Assembly: GCA_015178975.1 (NCBI GenBank)
Contig: WHVD01000010.1
Coordinates: 434,001-498,000, forward strand
Reading direction: 5' to 3'
DNA from: Hysterangium stoloniferum
Lineage: Eukaryota > Basidiomycota > Agaricomycetes > Hysterangiales > Hysterangiaceae
Length of the DNA: 64,000 nt
Both the position numbers and the translations under genes were made by a program. Shown in pieces: positions 8,815 to 48,106 of this stretch (positions are counted from its first letter, which is position 1; each line of letters begins with the position of its first letter). The notes beneath the pieces were generated by a model, which had not been told where the DNA came from, searched no databases, and saw nothing but the letters and a program-made list of their open reading frames with translations.

Positions 8815-9079
8815 TGTTGGAATTGGAACAATATTTAGTAGCCACAGCACAATATGTAACTGATTTAAGTCCCGGGTTGGCATCAGTCCATGTAACTGTT
8901 ATAAGTTCCAAAGATGGCATCAGTCATTTGTGACATGTAGAATACATGAGTATATATCCTCTAAGCAATACTACTAAATTAGGTTCAGTAGCTCAGTGGT
9001 TAGAGCACCGGCATATAAAACCAGGAAGTCCTTTGGTTCAATCCCAGGGCTAGGTCAATTCTTTTCTATACCCTTAATA
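8815..9079 (+). mobile_element. Solo LTR of a Copia family related to C3
   Basis: 265-bp LTR starting TGTTGGAATTGGAAC and ending CCCTTAATA, flanked by tctat and actat (4 of 5 match). It is a diverged relative of the C3 LTRs at 43284 and 47857, sharing the order TGTTAG/G start, CATCA-containing middle, tRNA-like module, then CAATTCTTTTCTAT. It sits about 100 bases past the predicted stop of the transporter gene, inside the longer in-frame reading of that gene. Confidence 0.75.
8982..9056 (+). other. tRNA-like module inside the LTR
   Basis: A box TAGCTCAGTGG and B box GGTTCAATCCC are intact and correctly spaced, and TTTT follows at 9062-9065. Six of seven acceptor-stem pairs (GGTTCAG with CTAGGTC) can still form, counting G-T pairs. 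The anticodon arm is irregular, so this is unlikely to be a working tRNA gene. It is homologous to 43438-43511 and 48011-48083. Confidence 0.7.
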
Positions 9080-33401: not shown

Positions 33402-34241
33402 CTAAATGAAGGCAATGTAAGATGCGCCAGCACTGTACAAGACAGTGTCGCTCCAGCTGTCAAGGTGCCACGTTAGCTCATTGTTGAAAACATTGTCAAA
33501 GTATGCTTTAAGGCGGAAGTTGCCGGTGTTGCCGATATCGAAGGAGTTGATGACGAAGAAGACCGCGGGAATACCGCTGAAAGTACCGTCGGGGAATGTG
33601 ACCTTGCCGGAATTCTCGAGGGCAGGCTGATTCCAAGGACGGACGTCCATCGTGTTGACGCTCCCGCTCGCGATATTCGTCTGGCCTGAGGGATACGCAA
33701 CCCAACCCGCCGTCGCGGAATACAGAATAGAGTCGGACCACGTGTCGATGTGTAAGCTAAAACCGTTGCAGTCAACATCCGTGACGAACGTCTTGCAACG
33801 CCAGTTGGAACTGTTAGACATGTCGAATTCCTTGAGGTAGCTGACGACTTTGGGGGGGGAGGGATAAGGGCAATCAAAGCAAATACGACGACAGGTCGTC
33901 GTCTGGGGTTTGTTCCAAGGGTGGTCATCCAATGTGGAGAACTGGCCGCGCTCAAACCCTTTCTTGTCGGCGGCGATTTCGAGCCAGCTGGCGCCGGCAG
34001 TGTAAAGCTTGGTATCGCTCCAAGTATCGCCGTTGGCAGTGAAGCCGGTGTTGGTAATGTTGCTCGCGGTAACCTTTACACGAACGTTGGTTGATTTGTC
34101 AATATCGACGGTGTTGAGACCGATCTGAACGGATGGTGGAGCGGAGTATGGGGTGTCGAAAGTGACTTGCTTGGCCGTCTGCTGTTTGAGATCATCCCAT
34201 GCGCGGATCTCAGTCGTGATGAATTGACCAGTGGCAGACAT
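33402..34241 (-). CDS. H-type lectin domain protein, three repeats
   Basis: Single-exon host gene of 279 residues. Three H-type lectin repeats of about 65 residues can be aligned by eye: residues about 24-90, about 117-182 and about 210-279. Each has an aromatic/proline opening (VTFDTPYSAPP, ICFDCPYPSPP, VTFPDGTFSGIP) and a central FDI/VDI/FDM. Each ends with the signature W-S-D-x(2-3)-Y-x-A (DTWSDTKLYTA, DTWSDSILYSA, DSWSDTVLYSA). The family binds sugars, often GalNAc, and includes snail agglutinin and slime-mould discoidin; fungal members occur in fruiting bodies. No signal peptide is visible, so a cytosolic or unconventionally exported lectin is likely. The start ATG is well placed 95 bases after a TTAAATA box. 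The reading frame is undamaged, which contrasts with the decayed repeats on both sides. Confidence 0.88.
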   Translation of the reverse strand: MSATGQFITTEIRAWDDLKQQTAKQVTFDTPYSAPPSVQIGLNTVDIDKSTNVRVKVTASNITNTGFTANGDTWSDTKLYTAGASWLEIAADKKGFERGQFSTLDDHPWNKPQTTTCRRICFDCPYPSPPKVVSYLKEFDMSNSSNWRCKTFVTDVDCNGFSLHIDTWSDSILYSATAGWVAYPSGQTNIASGSVNTMDVRPWNQPALENSGKVTFPDGTFSGIPAVFFVINSFDIGNTGNFRLKAYFDNVFNNELTWHLDSWSDTVLYSAGASYIAFI

Positions 34242-42920: not shown

Positions 42921-43283
42921 GGGATCCATCTTTTTTTCTGACAAACAGAACAGGTGCTCCAAAAGGAGACTTTGAGGGTTGAATAAAACCTATGTTCATC
43001 CAGGAAATCGCAGATTGTGGAACGTTCTGTGGACGAGAGCAGGTAAATATGTCCTAGGGGTGGCTGGGTGCCATCTTCAAGATCAATTTTTAAGTCATAT
43101 TCTCTGTGGGGTGGAAGCTGGTCAGCTTTTCACTTGCTAAAAACATCAGCAAAGTCATGATATTTCTCCAGGACACCTTCTAGGTCAGCAGCTTGCTCAG
43201 ATTTGGATACCGGGGTTGAAAAACATCCAGTTGCTTCATCAATTTTTAAGTTGATAGTGAACGCCTGGGACCTGTCCATTTTT

Positions 43284-43534
43284 TGTTAGAAATGGGAAAA
43301 TACAATATCTATATGTGACAGACTGTTATAAGACCCAGGCTTGCCATCAGTTATATAAACTGTTATAAGAGCACAAGTTGGCATCATAAGTCCTTATATA
43401 TATGTATATATAATCCATCATATAATACTAGACTATAGGTCCAGTAGCTCAGTGGTTAAGAGCACCTGTATATAAAGCCAGGAGGTCCTTGGTTCAATCC
43501 CAGGCTGGGTCAATTCTTTTCTATGCCTTTAACA
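43284..43534 (+). repeat. C3 5' LTR
   Basis: 251 bp, TGTTAGAAATGG...CCTTTAACA. A TATATA-rich centre (43404-43432) precedes the tRNA-like module at 43438-43511 and TTTT at 43517-43520. Confidence 0.95.
43438..43511 (+). other. tRNA-like module in the C3 5' LTR
   Basis: A 74-base cloverleaf-like unit. Acceptor GGTCCAG pairs with CTGGGTC over 7 of 7 positions including G-T pairs. D arm GCTC/GAGC is perfect. T arm CTTGG/CCAGG closes loop TTCAATC. A box is TAGCTCAGTGG; B box is GGTTCAATCCC. The anticodon arm (CCTGT...CCAGG) has a non-pairing closing position and one base too many in the loop, so no anticodon can be assigned safely. TTTT follows six bases later, suitable as an RNA polymerase III stop. 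There is no sign that it is a normal nuclear tRNA gene. Confidence 0.75.
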
Positions 43535-43552
43535 GGTTATGGGCCCCGCACT
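43535..43552 (+). promoter_or_regulatory. Copia primer-binding site, initiator tRNA-Met type
   Basis: GGTTATGGGCCCCGCACT directly follows the LTR end AACA. Its complement contains GGGCCCATAACC, the conserved anticodon-arm sequence of eukaryotic initiator tRNA-Met. Drosophila copia is known to prime with a 5' half of this tRNA. Variants of the site adjoin the 5' LTRs of C1 (near 4897-4909), C2 (near 16699-16711) and C4 (near 62190-62202). Confidence 0.75.
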
Positions 43553-43775
43553 CTAAGCGCTCTAGTACTGTATAACATTTTGCAAACTTGCTTCTTTTGA
43601 GTAAGTTTCAGCCTATACTTTATATTCCCCTGCCAGGCCCAGCCTTATTGCTGTTGCTAGTAGGGAGGAACTTGTATGCCACTAAGGCTGAGTTTCCCTT
43701 GAGACTACCATCTGGACCTCGAGTTAAATACCTTTTTTCTCAACTTCTTTGCGAGTTTGCTGCGTCTATACTACA

Positions 43776-46700
43776 ATGCCATCTTCCATTCCCCAATTCC
43801 CTAAAGTCAATCAGACTAAGGGGAAGAAGGCAAACAGCACTCAGGGGACAATGTCTCAGGGCAATGCACCCACTGCATTTCTCAAATGTACTTTCTGCTC
43901 CATGACCAACCATACTATGGACAAGTGTCATCGCTTCATCAAGAAGCAGCAGGAAGCACAGGAGAGTGTCCTTACCAATCGTGCTAAAGGGAAGAAGAAG
44001 CCAAATAGGCCTCAGAAGACAATGTCTCAGAACAATGTTGAATATACTGGAAATGCACTTGCTTTCTCCTCATCCGATTCCTCCACCCTGCAGAATGGTT
44101 CTGACTATGATTGGCTTGCTGATACAGGTGCTAGTAGTCATATGACTCCTCATAGTCATTGGCTGCGTAACTACACACCATTATGTGTCCCAATCAAGTT
44201 AGCAGATCATACTGTTATCTACTCTGCAGGAGTTGGTTCTGTGGTATTCAACCCAGTTATAAATGGAAGGAAATCACGATCTGTGGAGCTTACAAGAGTT
44301 TTACATGTACCACAACTACGCAGTAACCTTCTGTCTTGTCTTTATCTCACAAGGCACAAAGGACTACTCATACACATTGATCGAACAACAATGCATTTCA
44401 AACTCTCTGGGCAGACTTTGTTTACAGCCAGAGTTACTGCACAGAATGCAGGCATCCTAAATGGTGCCACTGCACCTATTATTGAGCAAGCTGGTGCTGC
44501 CTCCACTCTTCCCTTTGATATCAATCTCTGGCATCGCCGTCTTGGACACCACAGCTATGCTGATGTCCAGAAGATGATCAGAGAAGGATTGGTGGTTGGC
44601 TTAAACCTTGACTCAAAGGAACAGCCTGATCCTATCTGTGAACCTTGCCTTGCTGGAAAAATGACTGCCAATCCATTTCCTACCTCACCAAGTCAATCTC
44701 AGACACCACTTGAGCTTATTCATAGTGATCTACATGGACCACTTCCTGTGAAAACAACTGAGGGTTATCACTACTGGATAACCTTTATTGATGATTGTAC
44801 CAAGTTGCGAGCTGTTCTGTTCTTGAAACGGAAGAGTGATGCATTTGAAGCATTCAGGAGATACAAATCTTATGCTGAGAATCTTCTGGGTTGCAAGGTC
44901 AAAGCTCTGCAGGATGACAAAGGAGGGGAATACATGTCAAATGCTTTTATCAAGTTTACAGATGAATGTGGAATAGCACGCCATCATACTACTCGCAATC
45001 GCCCTCAACATAATGGAGTTGCAGAACAAGCCAATCATACCTTGGCTGATCATGTCACTGCCATGATGCATGAAGTGCGTATGCCTGCCTCATTCTGGAA
45101 TCATGCTGTGGCATCTTATGTCTATGTATGGAATCGTCTGCCTACTGCACCATTTCCCAAAACTACACCCTATGAGCAATGGTACAAGCAGAAACCAGAT
45201 GTGAGCAACTTGCGAGTGTGGGGGTGTACTGCCTATGTTTACATTCAAAAGGACAAAAGGAAGTCACTTCAGTCACACATGGAGAGGTGCATATTTCTTG
45301 GCTATCCAGTAGGATACAAAGGTTGGCAATTCTACAACCCTGTTACAAAGAAGTTTATCATCTCTGAACGGGCTGTATTTGATGAATGCCACTTTCCTGG
45401 TCTATCTACTACTGGACCAATGCCCAATATCAGCCTTGTTCCAAATAAACCAAACTCTGACATTCCTTTATTTGTGCCAGAAGTACAGGGGGATAATGAT
45501 ATTTCTGTCCCTCCAACTCATATTCATGCACCTCCTGCTCAGATTCCTGCACTTCCTATTCAGATTCCTGCACCTCCTGGTCAGATTCCTGCACTTCCTG
45601 AACCACCTTTACCTCCTCCTGGTGTTGAAAAACCTATTCAACTACCTCCTCCACCTGCACCAGAACCACAGCTTCGTCACTCTCAGCGTGTTTCAAAGCA
45701 ACCTGGTGAATGGTGGAAGGTACAACCTGCCCCAGCTCTAGCTGAGGATGATGATGAGGACATTGATTATGAGGAAGGACAGTTTGTTGGAACAGCTTCA
45801 ACTGCTGATCCACAAAACTACAAGCAGGCTATGAACGGTGATGATGCAGATAAATGGCAAGAAGCTATCAATGCAGAGTACAATACACTGGTAGAGAACA
45901 AGACATGGGAACTTGTTGACCTCCCAGTTGGTGCAAAGGCAATTGGTTCAGGTTGGGTGTTTAAAGTCAAACACAATGCAGATGGCACAATTGAGCATTA
46001 TAAAGCTCACCTTGTTGCCAAAGGATACTCACAACGTCCTGGCATTGACTACAATGAAGTGTTTGCACCTACTTTTAGACCTGCAACTCTGCGTTTGATT
46101 CTGGCCCTAGCTGCCATTGAAGACATGGACTTGCGCTCTGTTGACATTTCTGCTGCTTTCACTCATGGTGACCTTGATGAGACAATCTATATGAGACAAC
46201 CTGAAGGCTTCCATCAAGGAGGTCCTAATAAGGTTCTCAGACTCTTGAAATCACTCTATGGTCTCAAGCAGTCATCTCGTCAATGGAACATCAAATTGCA
46301 TGGTGCACTTACTGAAATGGACTTCAAACGAATTGAATCTGATACCTCTGTTTACATTTATTCAAATGGAGAGGTCAAGATCTTTGTGCCCATTTACATT
46401 GATGATATTACATTTGCATCCAAGTCCACTCTTGCCATTGACAAAGCTGTCAAGCAATTGTCCCTGCATTTCAAATGCCGTGATCTTGGACCCACTGTTT
46501 ATTTACTTGGTGTGGGAGTTGGCAGAGATCGCTCTAAGTGTCTCCTTACTCTTGATCAGCGACAGTTTATTCTCAATATGCTTGAGCATTATAACATGTC
46601 TGACTGTCATCCAGTTCTCACACCTATGACACCTGGTACATCCCTTTCCAAAGAAATGGGTCCTGAGAATGCTGCAGAGGTGGACTTCATGCGTAGTGTT

Positions 46701-47366
46701 CCTTATCTCAGTGCTGTTGGGTCTTTACAATATCTGGCTACTATGACCCATCCAGATATTGCTTATACTGTGTCCTACTTGGCACGTTTTAATGGCAATC
46801 CTGGACCAAGGCATTGGACAGCAGTGAAGCACTTGTTCAGATACCTAAAAGGTACACTGGAATACAAGTTGCATTATTCTGGTAAAAGTGGCTCTGAATT
46901 ATTCACCACATACACTGATGCTGCTCATGGTGATTGCATTGATTCTGGAAGATCCACTGGGGGTTATGTAACTATGATGGCTGGAGGTGCTATTGGCTGG
47001 AGTAGTAAACTGCAAAGTATTGTCACACTTTCTACAACTGAAGCAGAATTTGTCTCTGCTGTAGAAGCTGGCAAGGAGATTGCCTGGATGCGAAAAATCC
47101 TAGGTGAATTTGGCTACCAAGTTAATCAACCCTCCACTCTACACATTGACAACCAGTCTGCCATCAGTGTGGCTAAGAATCCTGAGCATCATGGGAGGAT
47201 GAAACATCTTGATCTTCGCTACTATTGGCTTAGAGATGCTGTAAATTCCAAGTGTATTACTCCTTCCTATATTCCTACTGCAGAACAAATTGCAGATATT
47301 CTAACCAAGCCTCTATCCTCTCTCAAGGTTCAATTTTGCCGTGATGGAATGGGCATTAGAACTTAG
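43776..47366 (+). CDS. C3 Copia polyprotein
   Basis: Uninterrupted frame of about 1,196 codons (an in-frame ATG at 43749 would add nine). Domains in order: zinc knuckle C-x2-C-x4-H-x4-C near the start; protease motif DTGASSHMTPH (about 44122); GAG-pre-integrase LWHRRLGHHSY (about 44526); integrase core with HSDLHG, QDDKGGEY and AEQAN supplying the D, D, E residues; a proline-rich linker (PAQIPALPIQIPAPPGQ, 45535-45600). Reverse transcriptase follows with WVFKVKHNADGTIEHYKAHL and catalytic YIDDI (46395-46409), then RNase H with STTEAEFVSA and HIDNQSAISVAKN. It provides maturation, cDNA synthesis and integration functions of the element inside virus-like particles. Confidence 0.93.
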   Translation: MPSSIPQFPKVNQTKGKKANSTQGTMSQGNAPTAFLKCTFCSMTNHTMDKCHRFIKKQQEAQESVLTNRAKGKKKPNRPQKTMSQNNVEYTGNALAFSSSDSSTLQNGSDYDWLADTGASSHMTPHSHWLRNYTPLCVPIKLADHTVIYSAGVGSVVFNPVINGRKSRSVELTRVLHVPQLRSNLLSCLYLTRHKGLLIHIDRTTMHFKLSGQTLFTARVTAQNAGILNGATAPIIEQAGAASTLPFDINLWHRRLGHHSYADVQKMIREGLVVGLNLDSKEQPDPICEPCLAGKMTANPFPTSPSQSQTPLELIHSDLHGPLPVKTTEGYHYWITFIDDCTKLRAVLFLKRKSDAFEAFRRYKSYAENLLGCKVKALQDDKGGEYMSNAFIKFTDECGIARHHTTRNRPQHNGVAEQANHTLADHVTAMMHEVRMPASFWNHAVASYVYVWNRLPTAPFPKTTPYEQWYKQKPDVSNLRVWGCTAYVYIQKDKRKSLQSHMERCIFLGYPVGYKGWQFYNPVTKKFIISERAVFDECHFPGLSTTGPMPNISLVPNKPNSDIPLFVPEVQGDNDISVPPTHIHAPPAQIPALPIQIPAPPGQIPALPEPPLPPPGVEKPIQLPPPPAPEPQLRHSQRVSKQPGEWWKVQPAPALAEDDDEDIDYEEGQFVGTASTADPQNYKQAMNGDDADKWQEAINAEYNTLVENKTWELVDLPVGAKAIGSGWVFKVKHNADGTIEHYKAHLVAKGYSQRPGIDYNEVFAPTFRPATLRLILALAAIEDMDLRSVDISAAFTHGDLDETIYMRQPEGFHQGGPNKVLRLLKSLYGLKQSSRQWNIKLHGALTEMDFKRIESDTSVYIYSNGEVKIFVPIYIDDITFASKSTLAIDKAVKQLSLHFKCRDLGPTVYLLGVGVGRDRSKCLLTLDQRQFILNMLEHYNMSDCHPVLTPMTPGTSLSKEMGPENAAEVDFMRSVPYLSAVGSLQYLATMTHPDIAYTVSYLARFNGNPGPRHWTAVKHLFRYLKGTLEYKLHYSGKSGSELFTTYTDAAHGDCIDSGRSTGGYVTMMAGGAIGWSSKLQSIVTLSTTEAEFVSAVEAGKEIAWMRKILGEFGYQVNQPSTLHIDNQSAISVAKNPEHHGRMKHLDLRYYWLRDAVNSKCITPSYIPTAEQIADILTKPLSSLKVQFCRDGMGIRT

Positions 47367-47567
47367 TTCTATTCTTTCTTTTCTTACTCTCTGTAGTTTA
47401 GCAAAGTCTCTCTCTCTGTCTCTCTCTCTGTTTCTTTTTCTTTGGAGACATGTGAGATCAGGGGGGTCTGTTAAAACTGCCTCCACTGTCTCCAAGACCT
47501 TCTGGAACCTTCTAGAACCTTCTAGAAGCTTCCAGCATGTTCCAGGGTATTCCCAGTTCATTTCCAT

Positions 47568-47675
47568 GACAGCTGTCAATCAGCTGTCAGTTTGTATTCC
47601 AGCTGTCAATCAGCTGTCAGTTTCCATTCAAGCTGTCAATCAGCTGTCAATCAGCTGTCACGTTTGACAGCTGAC
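47568..47675 (+). repeat. CAGCTG array before the C3 3' LTR
   Basis: Seven CAGCTG hexamers, mostly as CAGCTGTCA with AAT or GTTT between them, within about 110 bases. It lies between the end of the polyprotein frame and the 3' LTR. Each hexamer is a self-complementary E-box core. Confidence 0.9.
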
Positions 47676-47781
47676 AAGCCTACTGATGTATAATATATAT
47701 AAGCTTGTAGTTAGTGACCTGAATAGTAACAACTTTCCTCAAACTTGAGTGTGTCACATGTCACAGTAAGTCACAGGTCAC

Positions 47782-47803
47782 ATTTAACAGGTTATGGGCC
47801 CCG
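47782..47803 (+). repeat. Extra copy of the LTR-end/primer-site junction
   Basis: ATTTAACAGGTTATGGGCCC plus CG, about 55-75 bases upstream of the 3' LTR, repeats the junction found at 43528-43548 (TTTAACA then the primer site). See the findings. Confidence 0.8.
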
Positions 47804-47856
47804 TTCAGCTTCATCTGCTGTGTAAGGTATAGACTAGATATTGATTTCAGGGGAAG

Positions 47857-48106
47857 TGTTAGAAATGGGAAAATACAATATCTATATATGACAGACTGTT
47901 ATAAGACCCAGGCTTGCCATCAGTTATATAAACTGTTATAAGAGCACAAGTTGGCATCATAAGTCCTTATATATATGTATATATAATCCATCATATAATA
48001 CTAGACTATAGGTCCAGTAGCTCAGTGGTTAAGAGCACCTGTATATAAAGCCAGAGGTCCTTGGTTCAATCCCAGGCTGGGTCAATTCTTTTCTATGCCT
48101 TTAACA
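47857..48106 (+). repeat. C3 3' LTR with tRNA-like module
   Basis: 250 bp, nearly identical to the 5' LTR. The tRNA-like module is at 48011-48083. Confidence 0.95.

What the first reader, a model, noticed from the sequence alone, without database searches (positions are those of the whole stretch)
43438..43511. tRNA-like pol III module carried inside a Copia LTR
Both C3 LTRs and a diverged solo LTR (8982-9056) carry a unit with A box, B box, near-complete cloverleaf and T4 stop at the same place. The boxes are kept although the surrounding LTR has diverged. The plant TRIM element Cassandra carries a 5S RNA gene in its LTR; a tRNA counterpart would be analogous. It could drive pol III transcription, insulate, or derive from a captured SINE or tRNA. 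I do not know of a described example in fungi.
Basis: partly seen in the sequence, partly recalled or inferred. Interest (0 to 1): 0.85.

Follow-up and report, generated by a model that had tools for sequence, protein, structure and literature searches.

The report
Helenus tRNA-LTR element fused with Copia
A fungal jumping gene carries a tRNA-like sequence, probably a promoter, in its repeated ends; such elements were described in 2024 under the name Helenus, and this copy is unusual because it has fused with the Copia element that probably copies it.

Summary
The tRNA-like unit scores 47.8 and 42.7 bits in the two LTRs and 26.5, just under threshold, in the old solo LTR. Of 92 places found by the upstream LTR part alone, 87 are followed by both exact boxes; the other 5 are truncated, interrupted or point-changed. 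Between LTR families the unit is kept (5 of 71 fixed differences against 27 of 77 in adjoining U3), although old copies decay equally in both.

It is not new in kind. The LTR belongs mainly to a ~568-bp TRIM (LTR, 66-67 bp, LTR), often with 5-bp target duplications, and a primer site matching the host initiator tRNA-Met anticodon arm 14 of 14. That is Helenus (Kojima 2024, PMC10886601).

The window copy is a recombinant: Helenus LTR, Copia pol, Copia's own tRNA-less LTR, Helenus interior, Helenus LTR. Six such hybrids, in three arrangements, join at the shared LTR-end/primer-site stretch; three have 5-bp duplications, one in GA-rich sequence. I read them as strand transfers between Helenus and Copia in one particle, making this Copia the probable helper. 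Pol III transcription is inferred. The host looks like an agaricomycete.

The parts
43279..43283 (.). target-site duplication TTTTT, left
43284..43534 (+). 5' Helenus LTR (251 bp, TGTTA...TAACA)
   Evidence: the same LTR in the TRIM loci
43395..43413 (+). TATA-rich stretch upstream of the tRNA-like unit (possible pol II or pol III TATA)
   Evidence: sequence
43438..43512 (+). tRNA-like module
   Evidence: RF00005 47.8 bits; ARAGORN
43445..43455 (+). A-box core TAGCTCAGTGG
   Evidence: sequence; 85 of 85 full-length copies
43491..43501 (+). B-box core GGTTCAATCCC
   Evidence: sequence; 84 of 85 full-length copies
43517..43520 (+). TTTT, possible weak pol III terminator
   Evidence: surrounding tail exact in 80 of 85 copies
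43535..43548 (+). primer binding site GGTTATGGGCCCCG, complementary 14 of 14 to the host initiator tRNA-Met anticodon arm
43535..47468 (+). Copia internal region; lacks about 570 bp of gag that L043 and L045 keep
43749..47366 (+). Copia open reading frame, 1205 aa: Pol_BBD, gag_pre-integrs, rve, SH3_retrovirus, RVT_2
47469..47789 (+). Copia's own LTR (no tRNA match), TGTTAAAA...TTTAACA
47790..47856 (+). Helenus internal region: second primer binding site 47790-47803 and polypurine tract TCAGGGGAAG 47847-47856
47857..48106 (+). 3' Helenus LTR
48011..48084 (+). tRNA-like module of the 3' LTR
   Evidence: 42.7 bits
48107..48111 (.). target-site duplication TTTTT, right
8815..9079 (+). old solo LTR of a related family, flanks TCTAT/ACTAT (4 of 5)
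8982..9057 (+). tRNA-like module of the solo LTR
   Evidence: RF00005 26.5 bits, below the gathering score

Best explanation
The module is the internal pol III promoter of a Helenus TRIM. Shown: the TRIM anatomy (251-bp LTR with tRNA-like unit, primer site for initiator tRNA-Met, 52-53 further bases, polypurine tract, second LTR, 5-bp target duplications in about half), tandem arrays sharing LTRs, and selective retention of the A- and B-box regions and the T and acceptor arms between families. Inferred: pol III starts near the unit's 5' end in the 5' LTR, often reads through the short TTTT, crosses primer site, interior and U3, and stops after the unit in the 3' LTR, giving an RNA with the tRNA-like unit at both ends as its R region. 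A Copia that uses the same primer site packages, reverse-transcribes and integrates it. The window element is a hybrid made when Helenus and Copia were copied in one particle: plus-strand strong-stop DNA ending in the shared 21 bases TTTAACAGGTTATGGGCCCCG jumped from one template to the other.
For: TRIM structure: 33 of 34 fetched loci have two or more full-length LTRs; 19 of 36 LTR blocks have exact 5-bp duplications; arrays of 3 to 5 full-length LTRs. Primer site 14 of 14 to three host initiator tRNA genes. 87 of 92 U3 matches followed by both exact boxes. Fixed differences between LTR families: module 5 of 71, adjoining U3 27 of 77 (Fisher p 4e-5), A box 0 of 9, B box 0 of 10, T arm plus 3' acceptor 0 of 26, with equal decay among old copies, 0.825 and 0.826 identity. 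Six hybrids in three arrangements, each joined at the shared LTR-end/primer-site stretch; one of each arrangement has 5-bp duplications. Three T4-or-longer runs lie in the first 204 bases of the Copia interior, one of them T6, so a full-length pol III RNA of the coding element is unlikely. Of 17 host tRNA genes 14 have T5 or longer after them, so a T4 may be leaky.
Against: No RNA or ChIP data. One T4 per 318-bp unit is about what chance gives (0.7-0.85 expected), and 4 of 13 old LTRs have lost it (alignment). The RNA does not fold as a cloverleaf. TATA motifs at -43 to -17 of the unit fit a pol II start at the same place, and only 3 of 17 host tRNA genes have such a TATA within 60 bp. Three of the six hybrids (L041, L042, L043) have no matching duplications. 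The L045 duplication lies in GA-rich sequence (chance 0.015). 17 of 36 TRIM blocks lack an exact duplication.
Confidence: 0.8

Rival explanations
1. Pol II drives Helenus from the TATA-rich stretch; the tRNA-like unit is kept for another reason, such as TFIIIC binding, insulation, packaging or translation control.
For: TATA motifs at -43 to -17 of the unit; the helper's LTR has a TATATAAG and no tRNA match; no stable cloverleaf.
Against: Conservation sits in the A and B boxes and spares the anticodon arm (4 of the 5 fixed differences), the pattern expected of a promoter.
Confidence: 0.25
2. The hybrids arose after integration: circular one-LTR Copia or Helenus DNA recombined with an integrated copy at the 21 shared bases.
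For: The window (LTR_H-Copia-LTR_C-int_H-LTR_H) and L044 (LTR_C-int_H-LTR_H-Copia-LTR_C) are exactly what single circle insertions would give, and the outer duplications would be those of the first insertion.
Against: L045 (LTR_H-Copia-LTR_C) has unlike ends yet an AGAGA duplication, which circle insertion does not give but plus-strand transfer does. 21 bases is little for homologous recombination.
Confidence: 0.3
3. The unit is a working tRNA gene carried by the element.
For: Full-length Rfam and ARAGORN matches.
Against: Anticodon ATA or an 8-base loop, changed anticodon arm in the young family, no cloverleaf as minimum-energy fold.
Confidence: 0.02

Closest known systems
Helenus (Kojima 2024, PMC10886601: abstract, parts 2-4 of 6 of the text, figure legends and tables read)
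   Same: TRIM with tRNA-derived A and B boxes in the LTR, 5-bp duplications in fungi, anticodon-loop primer site (initiator Met is the commonest in fungi), probable Copia helper, solo LTRs, several families in one genome, predicted tRNAs mostly not functional.
   Different: The window copy is not a TRIM: it holds Copia pol and a Copia LTR between Helenus LTRs. Kojima saw no LTR similarity between LTR-1_PTrit and Copia-9_PGr and thought long LTR sharing with the helper unlikely; here whole Helenus LTRs are joined to Copia.
Cassandra (Kalendar et al. 2020, PMC7215508: abstract, outline and passages seen)
   Same: TRIM with a pol III gene in the LTR; tandem arrays sharing LTRs.
   Different: 5S RNA in plants, not tRNA in a fungus.
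Template-switch complexes, with VejuL and BARE2 named as products (Sabot and Schulman 2007, PMC1950507: abstract and part 1 of 2 of the text read)
   Same: Elements fused during reverse transcription, shared inner LTR, outer 5-bp duplications.
   Different: Described in grasses; no pol III module mentioned in what I read.

Membership tests
Helenus | tRNA-derived sequence with A and B boxes inside the LTR | tested here: met
Helenus | short non-coding element (311-1263 bp in Kojima) with two LTRs | tested here: met
   for the family: about 568 bp; 33 of 34 fetched loci have two or more full-length LTRs
Helenus | the window copy itself is a short non-coding element | tested here: not met
   4823 bp with a 1205-aa Copia frame; the window copy is a Helenus-Copia hybrid, not a Helenus
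Helenus | primer site complementary to a host tRNA, in fungi mostly the anticodon loop | tested here: met
   14 of 14 to initiator tRNA-Met
Helenus | 5-bp target duplications in fungi | tested here: met
   19 of 36 blocks exact; the rest lack one
Helenus | polypurine tract before the 3' LTR | tested here: met
   TCAGGGGAAG before inner and 3' LTRs in the listing (ATAGGGGAAG in two LTRs of L037)
Helenus | sequence homology to a named Helenus family | not tested
   Repbase and the paper's supplement were not available
TRIMp3 | transcription by pol III | not testable with these tools
   no RNA data; box conservation only
Copia superfamily (inner part) | integrase before reverse transcriptase in one frame | tested here: met
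   rve 320-419, RVT_2 717-961 of 1205 aa

The most novel reading that the evidence does not exclude
Coding Copia elements bearing Helenus LTRs at both ends, as in the window, form a mobile lineage of their own: LTRs with both a TATA and a tRNA promoter would make pol II coding RNA and pol III small RNA from the same ends, against the published argument that Helenus and its helper are unlikely to share long LTR sequence.
Probability: 0.08. Interest if true: 0.7.

Novelty: new variant of a known kind. Interest (0 to 1): 0.42.

Why it matters
In the paper that named Helenus, the helper was inferred from primer-site likeness and one internal stretch shared across two species. Hybrids in one genome, joined at the shared LTR-end/primer-site stretch, are closer to physical evidence that a particular Copia copies a particular Helenus. 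The within-against-between comparison also gives sequence evidence that the boxes, not a tRNA product, are what selection keeps.

Tried and rejected
Chance likeness to a tRNA: rejected (Rfam E 4e-7; family-wide). Working tRNA: rejected. A signal from the number of T4 runs: one per unit, as chance gives. Stable cloverleaf RNA: not seen. Origin of the module: of 20 fetched genome tRNA hits, L094 scored highest (58, called Ser(AGA), 73 nt) with two tRNA-Cys loci next (56 each); L088 (Cys) shares its first 18 bases with the module. No parent is claimed; one search listed 62 hits and scored 63 of 5384 candidates. L094/L113 as another LTR-borne unit: no repeats found in 801 bases. Preferential insertion of Helenus into its helper: 17 of 34 young loci have at least one flank in this Copia (7 both), against 0 of 13 old solo LTRs with both (and no Copia coverage in those loci); ages and clustering in TE islands differ and L022, L046 and L047 are copies of one segment, so no targeting is claimed. 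Host name: a search for '554 contigs' gave two plant papers. For one search, 13 of the 30 loci were used as the old set and L059 as a second young family; L062 and L065 were aligned but not counted; the 14 others, whose best match is 96% or more like LTR_H, were left out. Distal U3 was not used for the main test because some rows run out of the LTR there; whole U3 gives 68 of 145 (p 8e-10).

Full report
Observation. The window holds two LTRs, 43284-43534 and 47857-48106 (249 of 251 aligned columns identical, TTTTT on both sides). Each has an Rfam tRNA match: 43438-43512 with 47.8 bits, 48011-48084 with 42.7 bits. The solo LTR at 8815-9079 has a weaker one at 8982-9057, 26.5 bits against a gathering score of 29.

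What carries it. A search of the window's own genome (111 Mb, 554 contigs; 40 of 1019 candidates scored, so counts are lower bounds) found mostly a small element: 251-bp LTR, 66 or 67 bases, 251-bp LTR. I fetched 34 such loci (L009-L040, L046, L047; 33 have two or more full-length LTRs, L012 has one). They make 36 blocks of full-length LTRs: 30 with two, two with three, one each with four and five, and two single ones; 19 of 36 blocks have exact 5-bp duplications, 17 do not. The longest array, L024, was split into three blocks by my filter and has AATAC at both outer ends. In the listing, which shows ten bases on each side, the inner sides begin with the primer site and end with TCAGGGGAAG, apart from ATAGGGGAAG in two LTRs of L037. 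The primer site GGTTATGGGCCCCG is complementary over 14 of 14 bases to the anticodon arm of three host initiator tRNA-Met genes, spanning the anticodon. A 66-base interior encodes no retrotransposon protein: it is a TRIM.

Do all members carry the module? Among full-length LTRs 85 of 85 have the A-box core and 84 of 85 the B-box core, but that count required a match across the module. With U3 alone as query, 92 places in L009-L048 and the window were found; 87 are followed by both exact cores. The 5 others are two truncated fragments (L023), an LTR interrupted by another Helenus (L026), one with a changed B box (L030) and one with a damaged U3 (L037). The loci themselves were mostly found with a query that includes the module.

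Known kind. Kojima 2024 (PMC10886601; I read the abstract, parts 2 to 4 of 6 of the text, and the legends and tables) named TRIMs with a tRNA-derived sequence in the LTR Helenus. They occur in rusts, three agaricomycetes, animals and a lycophyte. Fungal ones have 5-bp duplications, mostly an initiator-Met anticodon primer site, and are thought to be moved by Copia. These features are met here. Searches for Helenus, TRIMp3 and tRNA genes within LTRs in the held library showed no second paper on such elements in their listings; I opened only five papers, two of them for single passages that proved irrelevant.

The host. Trehalose-phosphate synthase fragments match entry 8fhw best, clearly so for the first part (273.5 against 209.6 bits; the later part is nearly tied, 346.5, 346.0 and 343.3); that 8fhw is from the basidiomycete Cryptococcus is recalled. 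There are 116 listed matches to the fungal kinase family PF17667, pieces of genes counted apart and many weak, and 18, mostly weak, to hydrophobins. This points to an agaricomycete rather than a rust; that PF17667 is rich in agaricomycetes is recalled. The species is not identified.

Is the module kept by selection? I compared the young LTR with 13 old, scattered LTR copies of a related family, the window's solo LTR among them. Among the old copies, which are presumably dead, the module and the adjoining U3 (LTR 76-154) have decayed alike: 0.825 and 0.826 mean identity. Between the families, fixed differences are 5 of 71 in the module and 27 of 77 in the adjoining U3 (Fisher p 4e-5). The A box has 0 of 9, the B box 0 of 10, the T arm with the 3' acceptor strand 0 of 26; four of the five changes lie in the anticodon arm. 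Raw identity tells the same story: 0.853 in the module, 0.626 in the adjoining U3. This is what selection on a promoter, not on a decoding tRNA, would leave. The U5 tail is also fairly conserved (3 of 22), so the module is not the only kept part.

Promoter or product? ARAGORN reads anticodon ATA in 81 of 85 copies, an 8-base loop in 2, TAA in 1, and calls none in 1. Folding does not give a cloverleaf as the minimum-energy form in any of six sequences tried, and z-scores are -1.1 to 0.1. A TTTT follows the module with its exact surroundings in 80 of 85 copies and in 9 of 13 old copies (read off the alignment); one T4 in a unit is no more than chance gives. Host tRNA genes mostly have longer T runs: 14 of 17 have T5 or more. 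A leaky T4 would allow read-through from the 5' LTR and some stopping in the 3' LTR; this is inference. TATA motifs just upstream leave pol II open.

The hybrid. The window's inner 4.3 kb is not Helenus apart from its last 67 bases. It holds a Copia frame of 1205 aa with integrase and reverse transcriptase domains, about 570 bp short in gag relative to L045. It is followed by a 321-bp LTR without a tRNA match (47469-47789), which belongs to the Copia: in L027 a copy of this LTR runs directly into the same primer site and Copia interior, and 40 near full-length copies of it were scored in the genome (40 of 248 candidates). Then come a second primer site, the rest of the Helenus interior and the second Helenus LTR. 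The joint sequence TTTAACAGGTTATGGGCCCCG is identical at both places.

Six places joined Helenus LTR to Copia interior, the window among them; more may exist among unscored candidates. They fall into three arrangements. Window: LTR_H-Copia-LTR_C-int_H-LTR_H, duplication TTTTT. L044 and L041: LTR_C-int_H-LTR_H-Copia-LTR_C, duplication ATCAC in L044, none in L041. L045, L042 and L043: LTR_H-Copia-LTR_C, duplication AGAGA in L045, none in the other two. Chance of the matching 5-mers from local composition is 0.0005, 0.0011 and 0.0148.

Mechanism. Helenus and this Copia share LTR ends and primer site. If both are copied in one particle, plus-strand strong-stop DNA of one can land on the primer-site end of the other. 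That yields the L045 type directly, with unlike LTRs that integrase still joins with a 5-bp duplication; longer transfers yield the other two types and also the tandem arrays. Sabot and Schulman 2007 (PMC1950507; abstract and part 1 of 2 of the text) argued for template switching as the origin of complexes in grasses. Circle recombination explains the window and L044 equally well but not L045. The model is inferred from structure; no replication was observed.

Verdict. A real, conserved module in a known kind of element, in a family I could not match to a named one; the window copy is a structurally clear but probably incidental Helenus-Copia hybrid, whose value is that it ties a Helenus family to its likely helper within one genome.

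Noticed in passing
G000 C112:913507-1219099, also C61, C68, C98, C183, C290, C410, C486 (L084, L085, L087, L090, L092, L099, L100, L117, L118): 24 Rfam tRNA hits lie along 300 kb of contig C112. The two of them fetched (L087, L099) and the fetched similar-length hits on the other contigs named are tRNA-Lys(CTT) with a similar intron, so a large tRNA-Lys expansion is likely; two hits start 421 bp apart in L100. Cause unknown.
   Followed up: partly
window 43535-47468; L041, L042, L044 against L043, L045: The Copia occurs in two forms, with and without most of gag; the gag-less form is found in several copies and may depend on the other.
   Followed up: partly
L022, L046, L047 (C543:266000-278600): The same Helenus-in-Copia insertion repeats at 5.4-kb spacing, so a segment has been tandemly duplicated.
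   Followed up: no
L026:700-1524: A Helenus copy inserted inside the tRNA-like unit of another Helenus LTR (about LTR position 176-180, duplication AGAGC).
   Followed up: no
L024:1179-1467 and 1853-2141: Array LTRs with a short internal duplication around the module's 5' half, present twice in one array.
   Followed up: no
window 33402-34241 (-): A 279-aa protein with three H-type lectin domain matches.
   Followed up: no
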